From contig NZ_KQ031391.1 of assembly GCF_000966285.1 (NCBI RefSeq), positions 6,634,430 through 6,698,429 of the forward strand: a stretch of DNA of 64,000 nt. Reading direction: 5' to 3'. Below are positions 51,308 through 56,219 of the stretch, one piece after another. Numbering within the stretch: the first letter of the stretch is position 1; the number at the start of each line of letters is the position of its first letter. The notes below the pieces were generated by a model, which saw only the letters and a list, made by a program, of their open reading frames with translations, did not search any database and was not told where the DNA came from. Origin of the DNA: Pseudofrankia sp. DC12. Its GTDB lineage: Bacteria > Actinomycetota > Actinomycetes > Frankiales > Frankiaceae. A program made the translations under genes and the position numbers.

Positions 51308-51368
51308 CGTCTCAGGGCGACTCCGCGATCAACGAAAGCGCCAAAGTTTAACCGCAGCAAGCAGCGGG

Positions 51369-51421
51369 TTTTCCGCGGTAACGGCCTCGGCGACCTGCGC
51401 GGACGCGAGGGCTGGATGGGG
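51369..51421 (+). repeat. 53-bp repeat, left arm (inverted copy at 52501-52553)
   Basis: Pairs with 52501-52553 in opposite orientation with three visible mismatches; the core GCCTCGGCGACCTGCG is identical. The two copies flank the intact recombinase gene, as expected for its recombination or resolution sites. Confidence 0.8.
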
Positions 51422-51523: not shown

Positions 51524-52456
51524 TCAGCGGCGTCGGGCCGCAGGATCCCGGCCGGCCTGCCAACGGGCCAGCGCCTCCGGGGACACCCGGGCGTAGCGCG
51601 CCAGAGAGGCGACCGAGGTGTGCCCGGAGTAGGAAAGCAAGGTCGAGGTGTTCGCGCCGTCCTCGGCGGCGTGGGTGAGCGCCGAGTGGCGCAGCTGGTG
51701 CAGCGTCGCTCCGCCCGTCGCCGCGGTGAACAGCTCGGCCGCCCGGCGGTAAGACAGCCGGGCACGGCCGCTGCCCGGGTCGAGGTCGGCCGGCGGGAGC
51801 GCGAGGCGAGCGCGCCGGTCGGTGACGAACACCGGCCCCGCCGTCCGCCCCTTCAACAGCCGCGGCAGCAGCCGTGCAGAGCCGGTCCGCCAGACGATGA
51901 CGTCGACGGCGTTGCCCTTGCGGCGGACCTTGGCGCACCGGTTACGCAGGTCGAGCTCGTCGACGTCGAGGGCCAGGACCTCGGAGGCGCGGGCGGCGGT
52001 CTCGTACAACATCCGCCACAGCACCCGCTCCCGCAGCCCGATGTCGCCCCGGCCGAGCAGCTCCTCGACGACCGCCCGCGACAGCGCCCGGGTCCGATCG
52101 GGCGCGCGGCCGCGGCGGCGGATCGCCCGGGTCGGGTCGCCGACGATCCAGCCCTGGTCGCGCCAGTAGCCCGCCGCCGAGCGCAGCGCGTCCAGGTTGC
52201 GGTTGAACGTCGCCGGCGCCGCCGGCCCCCACCGCCCGGCAAACCAGCCGGCCAGCGTGCTCGCCGCGGCCGGCTCGTCGAGCACCGCGACAAGCACCTC
52301 CGATCCGAGGTGCTCGCGAAGCTGGCGCAACGTCGATGCGTAGACCCGCCGAGTCCCCGCCGTCTCCGGATGGTCCAACGTGGACAGGAAGGCGGCGACC
52401 GCCTCGGTCACAGTCGGCGCCTCCGAACGCCGCGCCAACGCCCGCACCGCACCCAT
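51524..52456 (-). CDS. Tyrosine recombinase (intact; Tn3-associated resolvase)
   Basis: 310 residues from the ATG at 52456. The N-terminal SAM-like DNA-binding domain spans about 15-110 (VAAFLSTLDHPETAGTRRVY). The catalytic domain keeps the full set: Arg in TAARASEVLALD, Lys in RRKGNAVD, HQLRH, the His of YSGHTS, and the nucleophile Tyr in LARYARVS. Some Tn3 relatives (Tn4430, Tn5401) use such a recombinase (TnpI) to resolve cointegrates, the best guess here. Inverted 53-bp sites flank it. It is nearly identical in much of its length to the frameshifted copy at 60902-61818, which lies in the opposite orientation. Confidence 0.9.
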   Translation of the reverse strand: MGAVRALARRSEAPTVTEAVAAFLSTLDHPETAGTRRVYASTLRQLREHLGSEVLVAVLDEPAAASTLAGWFAGRWGPAAPATFNRNLDALRSAAGYWRDQGWIVGDPTRAIRRRGRAPDRTRALSRAVVEELLGRGDIGLRERVLWRMLYETAARASEVLALDVDELDLRNRCAKVRRKGNAVDVIVWRTGSARLLPRLLKGRTAGPVFVTDRRARLALPPADLDPGSGRARLSYRRAAELFTAATGGATLHQLRHSALTHAAEDGANTSTLLSYSGHTSVASLARYARVSPEALARWQAGRDPAARRR

Positions 52457-52848
52457 GGCAGCCCCCTCCGCCTCTATCGCAGAAAAGCACCAGGAGTCGG
52501 CCCCGTCCAGCCCTCGCGTCCGCGCAGGTCGCCGAGGCTGTTACCGCAGAAAATCTGTTCCTCTCCGCGATAGCTCCCTAGTGAAGGCTTAAGAAGTACC
52601 GGCATGACGACGCCGGATGCCAGATGATCCTGTGACGAGGGGGAACGGATAGGCGTCTCGAGTGGGGCGCGAGCTCAGCGAACTGTGTCCTCACATCAGT
52701 GTGAGTCCCGTCCGGCGGGGCGGACCTGACCGCCCGCCCTGGAAGCAGGACATCCCCTGGTGGCGCTCGCCCTGACGCCACCAGGGGCGCGAGAATCAGT
52801 GCCCCAAGTCGACATGAGCACCCGCATGACACCCAAAGGATACGAAAT
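52457..52848. other. Intergenic region, recombinase / His-Cys repeat gene
   Basis: 392 bases. It contains the right arm of the 53-bp inverted repeat (52501-52553) and a perfect 12-bp hairpin (52754-52765 with 52776-52787, ten-base loop) about 60 bases before the His-Cys gene. AAAGGA near 52837 is that gene's likely ribosome binding site. No gene is evident. Confidence 0.55.
52501..52553 (-). repeat. 53-bp repeat, right arm (inverted copy of 51369-51421)
   Basis: Lies upstream of the intact recombinase gene. It matches the complement of 51369-51421 with three visible mismatches. Confidence 0.8.
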
Positions 52849-53640
52849 ATGCCAGTCGTAGAGGGTGTCGCCTCGGCGGCGCCCTATGACCCAAATGTGT
52901 TTGACCGGCTAAATGAATTCTATGTAGCAAAGCGCGGACTAAATCGAAGTCGAGAAAAGCTATGCCCTCTCGGTGACATCTTCGTCCGGCACGAGCTATT
53001 TGGGGTGCTAGGCGCCAATCTCTTGCATAAACATTTCAACATTGATGACGGAGAGGTGCTGGTTCGGCGCGTCTCCGACAACAGCGCCGTAACTCGTCCC
53101 GAGCGCTACCGTCCGGATCTCGCCCCGTACCTTTGGCGCCCGGTCGCCATCGGAGAGGGATCTTGGAATTTTTACCCGTTGGAGTTCCTTCCTGCGGAGC
53201 AGTGGAGCGACGATTTCAGCATCGACGAAAGCGGGGAATTTCTCTTCGAGTTCGCCGAACAATCCGCGCGACTGGGTGTCGGCGATCTCTTCGGTGTGGG
53301 ACTAAAGGTCCATCGTCAGCTTACCCTGAGGGATAACGAGATCCTTGTCGAGACGACCGATCTCGAACGGCGCGAACTCGTGGTACGTCCAGTAGACGCC
53401 GACAGCATTGCCGAAGAACTTACGGAAACGTTCTGGGAATTCACTCCTCCCGAGCTGTGCGGCAAGCCGGGTGTACACGCAAAAGGGAAATGTATAAGTC
53501 ACTGCTCAATGCACTGTAAGGGTCATTGCAAGAGCCACTGCAATAATCACTGTTCGGGCTCTCATTGCACTAACCACTGCCGCGGCCACGGCTCATCGAA
53601 TTGTGTGGGACACTGCGTTAACCACTGCGCTTCACACTGA
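52849..53640 (+). CDS. Protein with (x-x-His-Cys)n C-terminal tail
   Basis: 263 residues from an ATG behind AAAGGA. Residues 1-210 look like a folded soluble domain (KLCPLGDIFVRHELFGVLGA, then KHFNIDDGEVLVRRVS and WRPVAIGEGSWNFYPLEF); no family is recognised. Residues 215-263 are a tetrapeptide repeat of the form xxHC (ISHC, SMHC, KGHC, KSHC, NNHC, TNHC, VGHC, VNHC), holding 11 Cys and 11 His in 49 residues. This could bind several metal ions, or be a substrate for Cys modification as in RiPP precursors, but no modifying enzyme is encoded nearby. Codon use and clearly lower GC than neighbours mark recent transfer. Confidence 0.8.
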   Translation: MPVVEGVASAAPYDPNVFDRLNEFYVAKRGLNRSREKLCPLGDIFVRHELFGVLGANLLHKHFNIDDGEVLVRRVSDNSAVTRPERYRPDLAPYLWRPVAIGEGSWNFYPLEFLPAEQWSDDFSIDESGEFLFEFAEQSARLGVGDLFGVGLKVHRQLTLRDNEILVETTDLERRELVVRPVDADSIAEELTETFWEFTPPELCGKPGVHAKGKCISHCSMHCKGHCKSHCNNHCSGSHCTNHCRGHGSSNCVGHCVNHCASH

Positions 53641-53991: not shown

Positions 53992-54567
53992 CTACGGGCG
54001 TTCCGTAGTGTTCTTTGACCTCAGTTCGGCGCGCACCTCATCCGCCTCATGCCGATTCATCGCGTTGAGTATGCCCTCTGCGACACTGGCTGGCATCTTA
54101 GCGAGTCGAGCAGCTGCCCATCCCGAGCCGGACATGGCCAAGACAGCACCTGCCATGTGAGGAGACATGACGGTCAGCCACTGGCTGCCTAGGTCGCTAT
54201 CCACGCTGTGTAGCCGGTCCAAAGCCGAGTCGGGGTCGAGTTCTCTCAACCAAGCCTTGGTCTGCTGGTTGATCATCGATGGGTCTGCCTGGTGTTCTTC
54301 GCGCTGCTGAGCAGAGTGGGAGGGATCATCCGCGGTGTCCCAGCCCAAACGGTTTGTCATCTGTGAATCCGTGCTTCCGATGCTACGGCGGGCATCGCGT
54401 AACCTCTGTATCAATTGCCGTACCTTGCGATCAGATATCACTGCATCGAACATGCCCTCGCTTCGGCGCTCATCGTTGTCAAGTTCGCCGCTGATCGCAT
54501 CGATCAGCGCCCTGGCCTGCGAGTCCGCGATGCCGTGGTCGTCAAGGAATACTTCGCAGGCCACCAC
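53992..54567 (-). CDS. Hypothetical protein, likely 3' part of an IS-split gene
   Basis: 191 residues from a GTG at 54567. Helical throughout: FLDDHGIADSQARALIDAI, then an Arg-rich helix (KVRQLIQRLRDARRS), and a C-terminal part (AWLRELDPDSALDRLHSVDS, then MAGAVLAMSGSGWAAARLAKM) resembling the superhelical MgtE-N/FliG-like repeats. The frame stays open upstream as NIPDQEERESRVVACEVF with no good start, up to where the IS begins. The helix-turn-helix gene at 56220-56804 on the same strand loses its end at the other side of the IS. The two are best read as halves of one gene of about 400 codons. GC is low for the window. Confidence 0.6.
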   Translation of the reverse strand: MVACEVFLDDHGIADSQARALIDAISGELDNDERRSEGMFDAVISDRKVRQLIQRLRDARRSIGSTDSQMTNRLGWDTADDPSHSAQQREEHQADPSMINQQTKAWLRELDPDSALDRLHSVDSDLGSQWLTVMSPHMAGAVLAMSGSGWAAARLAKMPASVAEGILNAMNRHEADEVRAELRSKNTTERP

Positions 54568-54761: not shown

Positions 54762-56078
54762 TCAGGCCGCGAGGCCGTGCTCGGTGGTGTCCCAGGCCAG
54801 GTGGAGGGTGTGGATTTCCGCGGCGGTGGGCGTGACGGGGTCAGCTGGGCGAAAACGCGCGGTGATCAGGACGCGGCGTAGCTTGCCGAGGGCGTCGGCG
54901 GTCGAGACGGTCGTCTTGGTCGTGTACCAGGGTGCGCGGGCGGTGGCGTCGGCGACGTCGGAGTCGTGGTGGCCGGCGGTGAGGTACCAGGTCAGGGTGA
55001 GGGTCTGGGCGAGCAGGGCGAACGGGACCGCGTGCCGCACGGCCTGCGCGGTGCGGGTGTGGGTCTGTCCGACGCCGAAGAGCTGCTTGGCGTCGGCGAT
55101 CGCGACCTCGACCGCCCAGCGGGCGGCGTACCGCTCGGCGATCGTGGCGGGGCGGCTGAACAGGTCCGTGCTGATCAGGGCGAGCAGCGGGCGGCCGGGT
55201 TCGCGGACGAGCACGAGCTGGACGAGGCGGGGGCCGAACACCGAGTACCACAGGCAGACGGTCACCGCGACGTCGACGGTGTGGACGCGGCCGTAGCGGG
55301 TGACGGTGGTCGGGCGGAAGTCGGCGGTGGCGGCGAGCTGGGTGATCGTGGCGAGCCGGTCGCCCTTGACGCGGGGGCGGCCTCGGCGGCCGGTGCGCGG
55401 CGGGGCCGGCGCGAACAGGGCGGCGTCGGCACGCGGTCGAGTCGTCCAGGTCACGTTGCGTGGCAGGGACTTCAGCTCGCCGCCGGCGTAGGCGGAGTCC
55501 GCCACGACGTGGACCTGGCGGTCCGGGAACAGGCGGGCGAGCCGGGCCGCGGCGCGGGCGGCGAGCCACAGCCGGGAGCCGGACATGGTGCCCTTGACAA
55601 CCAGGCACGCGTAGACCGGCAGGCAGATCGGCCGCGCGAAGACCGTGCCGCGCAGGACGACACCGACGATGACCCAGTTGTTGCCGAAGCCGACCGGCGT
55701 CTCGCCCTTCGCGGCGCCGTCGTGGAACCAGCCCGCGGCGAAGACCTTCCGCCCGGCGCGGTGGAAAAGGGTGTCATCGACGACGACGGTTATCGGCCCG
55801 GGGCCGGTGAGCAGACCGACGACGAGACGGGCCAGCGTGTCGCCGACCTCGTCGAGCGTCCAGGCGGCCTTCGCGAAGAAGTAGTGGGCCCGGTGGTGCG
55901 GGGTGTCCCGATGGCGGCCGGCGCCGACGAGCATCCCGACGACGGTGCGCCGCCCGGGCGCGGCGACCAGCCCGGTCGCCAGCATCCGGAACGTGGCGAA
56001 GCTCGGCGCGGTGAAACACGGCCGGAAGTACTCCAGCAGGACGGCGAACGACGGCGGTATCGTGACGTGCGGGAGCAT
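54762..56078 (-). CDS. DDE transposase of a nested insertion sequence
   Basis: 438 residues from the ATG at 56078. The DDE set is visible: VVVDDTLFHRAGRKV (first Asp), HVVADSAYAGGEL (second Asp) and RWAVEVAIADAKQLFG (Glu in the last helix). FHDGAAKGETPVGFGNNWV is also typical of this actinobacterial transposase type. Family is IS4-superfamily-like, perhaps IS701; I am not sure. The frame is open to 56180, but that part is Arg-rich and non-conserved. A 13-bp inverted repeat brackets the start codon. I could not define the ends of the IS: flanks near 54600-54660 and 56225-56275 show only weak inverted similarity. Confidence 0.85.
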   Translation of the reverse strand: MLPHVTIPPSFAVLLEYFRPCFTAPSFATFRMLATGLVAAPGRRTVVGMLVGAGRHRDTPHHRAHYFFAKAAWTLDEVGDTLARLVVGLLTGPGPITVVVDDTLFHRAGRKVFAAGWFHDGAAKGETPVGFGNNWVIVGVVLRGTVFARPICLPVYACLVVKGTMSGSRLWLAARAAARLARLFPDRQVHVVADSAYAGGELKSLPRNVTWTTRPRADAALFAPAPPRTGRRGRPRVKGDRLATITQLAATADFRPTTVTRYGRVHTVDVAVTVCLWYSVFGPRLVQLVLVREPGRPLLALISTDLFSRPATIAERYAARWAVEVAIADAKQLFGVGQTHTRTAQAVRHAVPFALLAQTLTLTWYLTAGHHDSDVADATARAPWYTTKTTVSTADALGKLRRVLITARFRPADPVTPTAAEIHTLHLAWDTTEHGLAA

Positions 56079-56125
56079 CGGCGACCCACTCTTCGGAGTG
56101 TTGGTGTGGAAACGCCGATGCTCCC
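56071..56125. promoter_or_regulatory. Inverted repeat over the IS transposase start codon
   Basis: GGGAGCATCGGCG (56071-56083) and CGCCGATGCTCCC (56113-56125) pair perfectly; the first arm contains the ATG (complement). A message folding this way would hide the start codon, a known way to restrain transposase synthesis. Confidence 0.6.
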
Positions 56126-56219
56126 GCCACCAGCCCCGTGAGCTGGACCTTCCCCTCATCAACACTCCGCGTGAAGCCACGCGCGGAAACAGCCGGCGAA
56201 CATGCCCACACTGAACCAG

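What the first reader, a model, noticed from the sequence alone, without database searches (positions are those of the whole stretch)
52849..53640. Low-GC gene with an xxHC tetrapeptide-repeat tail
Seen: 11 Cys and 11 His in the last 49 residues in a four-residue rhythm, attached to a ~210-residue domain of unknown family, in DNA of clearly lower GC than its surroundings. Such a tail could hold several metal ions or serve as a modified peptide. No radical-SAM, cyclase or maturation gene is nearby, which argues for metal binding.
Basis: partly seen in the sequence, partly recalled or inferred. Interest (0 to 1): 0.7.

Follow-up and report, generated by a model that had tools for sequence, protein, structure and literature searches.

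The report
Two-domain protein with His-Cys repeat tail
A bacterial gene encodes a protein made of two copies of an undescribed small domain followed by a tail that repeats histidine-cysteine about eleven times; the tail looks like an expanded form of the short cysteine/histidine ends found on scattered relatives in other bacteria, and it probably binds several metal ions, which nobody has tested.

Summary
In detail: ORF 52849-53640 (+, 263 aa) ends in 49 residues with 11 Cys and 11 His, mostly as xxHC. I found about 47 distinct relatives, scattered across several phyla. Nearly all are shorter and end in a small Cys/His tail. In 18 of 47 the tail fits C-x(0-3)-C-x(3-14)-H-x(2-4)-H (1.5 expected from shuffling). 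The window tail repeats the same i,i+4 Cys and His spacing about elevenfold with differing spacers, so it appears to be kept at protein level and is not a DNA minisatellite. Best explanation: a flexible metal-binding tail (Zn or Cu) expanded from a one-site ancestor (about 0.55). Main rival: the domain is a folded leader and the tail a modified peptide. For it: Pseudomonas relatives carry independently expanded, number-variable Cys repeats, and four divergent loci share an uncharacterised ~400-aa neighbour. Against it: neither that gene nor an MNIO gene was found in the window's genome. Metal binding, modification and expression are untested. The family appears undescribed, judged only by the libraries and papers searched here.

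The parts
52849..53640 (+). Whole ORF, 263 aa: domain copy 1, domain copy 2, Cys/His tail
   Evidence: homology to relatives across phyla supports that the frame is translated
52835..52840 (+). AAAGGA, probable ribosome-binding site, 8 nt before the ATG
   Evidence: sequence
52876..53151 (+). Domain copy 1 (residues ~10-101); keeps LLHKHF at residues 58-63
   Evidence: independent HMM i-E 4e-6; projection
53026..53037 (+). H-x-H-F motif of copy 1 (residues 60-63), nearly invariant in the family
   Evidence: alignments A5 and A7; motif table
53158..53439 (+). Domain copy 2 (residues ~104-197); FGVGLKVHRQL in place of FGVxLLHxHF (motif lost)
   Evidence: independent HMM i-E 1e-8; AF2 pLDDT 75-88 in its beta part
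53491..53637 (+). xxHC tail, residues 215-263: 11 Cys, 11 His, no acidic or aromatic residue
51524..52456 (-). Tyrosine recombinase beside the gene (mobile context)
   Evidence: Pfam Phage_integrase 1.9e-16
54762..56180 (-). DDE transposase downstream (mobile context)
   Evidence: Pfam DDE_5 6e-24

Best explanation
The gene encodes a probably cytosolic, horizontally acquired metal-binding protein (no secretion signal was assessed). Shown: two copies of an undescribed domain; copy 1 keeps the family's H-x-H-F motif, copy 2 has lost it; relatives end in short Cys/His tails; here the i,i+4 Cys and His spacing is repeated about eleven times with differing spacers. Inferred: relatives bind one metal ion with the C..C...H..H tail, perhaps helped by H-x-H-F, while here the flexible tail holds several soft metal ions (Zn(II), or Cu(I)/Cd(II) under stress). 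With 22 ligands and four per ion it would hold up to about 5 Zn(II), buffering or storing metal as metallothioneins do.
For: 11 Cys and 11 His in 49 residues, unmatched in the window. Tail motif C-x(0-3)-C-x(3-14)-H-x(2-4)-H in 18 of 47 relatives (window included) against a shuffled mean of 1.5 (max 5 in 1000); His-His spacing of 4 seen 13 times against 2.4 expected, Cys-Cys spacing of 4 seen 14 times against 3.9, window excluded from these spacing counts. All six spacers between adjacent HC pairs differ, while nearly all other DNA matches to (HC..)x4 are tandem copies of one to three 12-nt units, so His and Cys seem kept at protein level. No MNIO and no 'dn' homologue found in the genome; no modification gene by Pfam among the neighbours scanned.
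Against: No metal-transport or metal-sensing gene is adjacent (a weak MgtE_N match at 53995-54567 is below its cut-off). Streptomyces and Pseudomonas relatives have Cys tails without the His pair, so Cys rather than His is the constant. In Pseudomonas and Lentzea the gene sits in a row with enzyme-like genes. The tail lacks the CxC and CxxC motifs usual in metallothioneins. Nothing here measures metal binding.
Confidence: 0.55

Rival explanations
1. The ~100-aa domain is a folded leader and the variable Cys-rich tail a core peptide that is modified after translation, as in NHLP- or Nif11-type natural-product precursors; long repeat tails would be multi-core precursors.
For: Conserved N-terminal domain with highly variable Cys-rich ends. 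Nearly perfect 13-aa repeats (VEALTACAMDKCK), about 5 to 9 copies, in Pseudomonas. An unknown ~400-aa 'dn' gene recurs downstream in Pseudomonas, Lentzea and Rhizobium phaseoli, the most widely shared neighbour in 22 loci. Folded long leaders are known (PMC2887384, PMC12455567).
Against: No 'dn' or MNIO gene found in the window's own genome. 18 of the 22 loci compared have no 'dn' nearby. No Gly-Gly cleavage site in the protein. No homology to NHase or Nif11 leaders.
Confidence: 0.25
2. The tail works in redox chemistry or assembly: its thiols form disulfides or cross-links, or dock to a partner, and metal is incidental.
For: Cys is the most constant tail residue; Streptomyces (QC-x5-GC) and Pseudomonas (C-x4-C-K) tails lack the His pair.
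Against: Does not explain the equal, interleaved His in the window tail or the H-x3-H spacing in many relatives.
Confidence: 0.12
3. The tail is a by-product of a DNA repeat read in frame, with no function.
For: 12-nt repeats giving (HC..)n frames occur by chance: 20 of 394 actinomycete genomes match the pattern, and the reversed control pattern also matches in many. The gene lies in mobile, low-GC DNA.
Against: Only a weak 2.5-copy array is found at DNA level. The spacers differ and His/Cys use both codons. The tail starts at the C-x3-C position shared with relatives.
Confidence: 0.05

Closest known systems
Bacterial metallothioneins (SmtA, MymT, Pseudomonas MTs; PMC7387436 abstract)
   Same: Dense thiol and imidazole ligands in a flexible stretch without aromatic residues, likely to bind several soft metal ions.
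   Different: 263 aa with two folded-looking domains; ligands only in the last 60 residues; C-x3-C with alternating His instead of CxC/CxxC; no Pfam metallothionein match.
Frankia 'possible metallothionein' with 3-4 CXXC motifs and several His (PMC4531530)
   Same: An actinomycete Cys/His-rich protein proposed to bind metal.
   Different: That one is described by CXXC motifs; this one has no CXXC in its tail and carries two unknown domains. Sequences not compared (supplement not available).
C2H2 zinc motifs
   Same: Relatives' tails: C-x(0-3)-C ... H-x3-H.
   Different: The gap between the Cys and His pairs is usually 5-10 residues; no zinc-finger family matches above threshold; metal not shown.
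NHLP and Nif11 RiPP precursors (PMC2887384)
   Same: Conserved folded N-terminal part plus hypervariable Cys-rich C-terminal part.
   Different: No homology, no Gly-Gly site, no maturation cluster in the window.
Bufferin/MNIO Cys-rich copper peptides (PMC12538549, PMC13097082 abstracts)
   Same: Cys-containing peptides tied to copper.
   Different: No MNIO gene found in this genome and no such precursor match.

Membership tests
Bacterial metallothionein | Small protein (below about 100 aa), Cys-rich throughout | tested here: not met
   263 aa; Cys concentrated in residues 204-263
Bacterial metallothionein | CxC / CxxC clusters | tested here: not met
   Cys steps in the tail are 4, 5 and 8 only
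Bacterial metallothionein | Match to a metallothionein profile | tested here: not met
   Only C_tripleX at E 0.38, below its cut-off; none in NCBIfam
Bacterial metallothionein | Binds several metal ions via thiolates | not testable with these tools
   needs purified protein
C2H2-type metal site (relatives' tails) | C-x(n)-C ... H-x3-5-H spacing conserved beyond composition | tested here: met
   18 of 47 representatives against a shuffled mean of 1.5; H-x3-H 13 against 2.4
C2H2-type metal site (relatives' tails) | Bound metal | not testable with these tools
   tail has low confidence in the AF2 models
NHLP/Nif11 RiPP precursor | Leader homologous to NHase alpha or Nif11 | tested here: not met
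   no Pfam or NCBIfam match
NHLP/Nif11 RiPP precursor | Gly-Gly cleavage site before the core | tested here: not met
   no GG in the protein
NHLP/Nif11 RiPP precursor | Maturation or export genes in the cluster | tested here: not met
   neighbours scanned by Pfam are a recombinase, a transposase, a weak MgtE_N match and unknowns
MNIO-modified (bufferin-type) peptide | MNIO enzyme in the genome | tested here: not met
   PF05114 not found in G000 with the control positive
Copper storage protein (Csp) | Four-helix bundle with Cys pointing inwards | tested here: inconclusive
   no fold match and low confidence for the tail

The most novel reading that the evidence does not exclude
The ~100-aa LLHxHF domain defines an undescribed, phylum-spanning family of carrier or leader proteins whose Cys-rich tails have expanded independently by different repeat designs (xxHC here, VEALTACAMDKCK in Pseudomonas). 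In some hosts the tail would be processed by a new enzyme family ('dn', no Pfam match), giving a new class of modified, metal-binding peptides.
Probability: 0.2. Interest if true: 0.8.

Novelty: new variant of a known kind. Interest (0 to 1): 0.55.

Why it matters
It opens an apparently unnamed protein family that crosses phyla, travels on mobile DNA, and keeps one small domain while its Cys-rich tail changes freely. Two lineages seem to have lengthened the tail independently. That gives a natural series for testing whether tail length sets metal capacity and, through the Pseudomonas/Lentzea/Rhizobium gene neighbourhoods, a concrete candidate for an undescribed peptide-modifying enzyme.

Tried and rejected
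L003, L004, L005 and L007 were low-complexity tail hits without the domain. Phage records and viral contigs gave no relatives. AF2 of the window protein was poor overall (pLDDT 52.7) and moderate for a single-domain relative (68.7); Foldseek and VIA found no fold match, which at this model quality is not proof of a new fold. 'dn' looked SelO/kinase-like by eye (FDIKGxGV...LIDGVNVQ...MDFG), but a SelO profile comparison gave only P 0.02, probability 2%, so that label is not used. A raw DNA search for (HC..)x4 gave mainly simple 12-nt repeats. PMC searches found no description of the family.

Full report
Observation. The ORF is present as described: 52849-53640 (+), ATG, 263 residues, preceded by AAAGGA 8 nt upstream. 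The last 49 residues, CISHCSMHCKGHCKSHCNNHCSGSHCTNHCRGHGSSNCVGHCVNHCASH, hold 11 Cys and 11 His; the Cys steps are 4 apart from a 5 and an 8. No other 49-residue open stretch in six frames of the 64 kb has more than 4 of each. The gene has GC 0.553 in a window of 0.723, in a low-GC stretch between a tyrosine recombinase and a DDE transposase. The 6.9 Mb single-contig genome has one copy.

What the first ~210 residues are. They are not one domain. A profile built only from relatives, without the window rows, finds two copies, residues 39-76 and 129-196 (i-E 4e-6 and 1e-8), which project to about residues 10-101 and 104-197. The domain core reads DRFGVxLLHxHFxLxxDEVLVExxDxxxRTL...TxWxF. The first copy keeps LLHKHF; the second has lost the pair (KVHRQL). 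By motif table or by reading the sequence, the same holds in the other two-domain relatives L002, L013, L014, L024 and L090: H-x-H-F is intact in copy 1, and one or both His are lost in copy 2 (in L014 the second copy is seen only by eye, the profile finds one). In single-domain relatives the two His are nearly invariant, so H-x-H-F is probably functional and needed once per protein. No member reached a Pfam, NCBIfam or PADLOC family above chance, and no PDB sequence or fold match is meaningful. The model used for the fold search had mean pLDDT 68.7, so the fold is unknown rather than shown to be new.

The family. Searches of genomes, plasmids and GTDB contigs gave 90 open frames with the domain among the loci fetched, 47 after removing near-duplicates. 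They come from Pseudomonadota, Actinomycetota, Bacteroidota, Verrucomicrobiota, Nitrospirota, Bacillota, a Parcubacteria MAG and an Acetothermia MAG. Presence is sparse: 6 of 394 sampled Actinomycetes, 11 of 399 Pseudomonas, 3 of 339 genomes of the phylum of the Bradyrhizobium locus. Several copies sit on plasmids or beside transposases and integrases. This fits a horizontally moving accessory gene.

The tails. Of the 47 representatives, 46 have at least one Cys after the last domain. 18 fit C-x(0-3)-C-x(3-14)-H-x(2-4)-H; shuffling each tail gives 1.5 on average and never more than 5 in 1000 rounds. In the short tails, window excluded, His-His spacing of 4 occurs 13 times against 2.4 expected, and Cys-Cys spacing of 4 occurs 14 times against 3.9. 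A supported clade (100/99) has tails without the His pair: Streptomyces (...LQC-x5-GCPG), Lentzea (CEILQGCKEDKCK) and Pseudomonas, where VEALTACAMDKCK is repeated about 5 to 9 times in different genomes. The window domains fall outside that clade; their exact position is uncertain because the branches are long. The window tail begins with the C-x3-C that relatives share and continues the i,i+4 spacing of both Cys and His. It therefore looks like an expansion of the family's tail, separate from the Pseudomonas expansion. No other member found has a long xxHC tail.

Is it only a DNA repeat? Tandem Repeats Finder sees only a weak 2.5-copy array of period near 12. The six spacers between adjacent HC pairs all differ, and both codons of His and Cys are used. 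A DNA pattern search for (HC..)x4 in 394 actinomycete genomes and in viral contigs gave some 140 loci; nearly all others are copies of one to three 12-nt units, mostly in short or implausible frames. So the window's His and Cys appear to be kept at protein level. This is inferred from one sequence; no close relative of this tail was found to measure selection.

Neighbourhood. Pfam places no metal or modification gene beside the window gene; one neighbour has a sub-threshold MgtE_N match. Among 22 loci with other members, the most widely shared neighbour is a ~400-aa protein 'dn' in P. chlororaphis, P. protegens, Lentzea and R. phaseoli. In the first three it follows the tail gene in a row with a 1900-2000-aa LysM protein upstream (only its C-terminal part is in the P. 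chlororaphis locus) and, in Pseudomonas, a DegT-type gene. 'dn' has no Pfam match above cut-off; a suspected SelO likeness was not confirmed. The window's genome has no 'dn' match (the tool warns that an empty answer has no positive control there) and no MNIO gene.

How it probably works. Shown: architecture, tail composition, and conservation of the family motif. Inferred: one metal site in typical relatives and several in this tail. With 22 ligands and four per ion, about five Zn(II) could be held; Cu(I) clusters could take more. The tail has no acidic or aromatic residue, a trait it shares with metallothionein metal domains (general knowledge). The domain may help bind metal through H-x-H-F or may locate the protein; neither was tested. 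The main rival is that the domain is a folded leader and the tail a modified core, for which NHLP/Nif11 precursors give a precedent of logic but not of homology (PMC2887384, PMC12455567).

Verdict. Observation confirmed; architecture corrected; interpretation partly supported. The gene appears to belong to an unnamed family, with a tail variant not seen elsewhere in these searches. Metal binding at about 0.55 is the best bet; the modified-peptide rival is about 0.25. 'Undescribed' rests on the libraries and open papers searched here and not on a full literature search.

Noticed in passing
window 51353-51421 and 52501-52569: 69-nt inverted repeats, 86% complementary, flank the tyrosine recombinase ORF 51524-52456; looks like a recombinase-bearing mobile unit next to the gene.
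   Followed up: no
L033, L035, L073, L085, L086, L087, L089: Pseudomonas relatives carry 13-aa tail repeats VEALTACAMDKCK (one strain with AEDKCKIE variants) whose number differs between genomes, about 5 to 9 copies.
   Followed up: partly
L035 219-8710, L041 15-7525, L033 143-3679, L014 3884-7143: Unknown ~400-aa 'dn' protein recurs downstream of family members; a LysM protein of ~1900 aa lies upstream in L035 and L041 (its C-terminal part in L033), and a DegT-type gene in the two Pseudomonas loci.
   Followed up: partly
window 53995-54567 (-): ORF with a sub-threshold MgtE_N match (E 3e-5, below the curated cut-off), close to the gene.
   Followed up: no
L026, L036, L075-L080 (genome G400, Microscilla): One Bacteroidota genome holds five family members with different tails, one of them with no Cys.
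   Followed up: no
L008, L027: Identical member proteins in Thiodictyon (plasmid, near an integron integrase and IS91) and Lamprocystis, suggesting recent transfer.
   Followed up: no
L009, L031, L032, L034: Same gene at 99-100% identity on Pseudomonas plasmids and in several Pseudomonas species, beside a DM13-domain gene and IS elements.
   Followed up: no
L006 9173-11059 and L025 2767-4998: Both loci have a homologous protein, CHASE2-like by eye, within a few kb of the family gene.
   Followed up: no
L010, L040, L054: In some Streptomyces loci the family gene neighbours a DUF6185-like large membrane protein (L010 annotated; others by eye).
   Followed up: no
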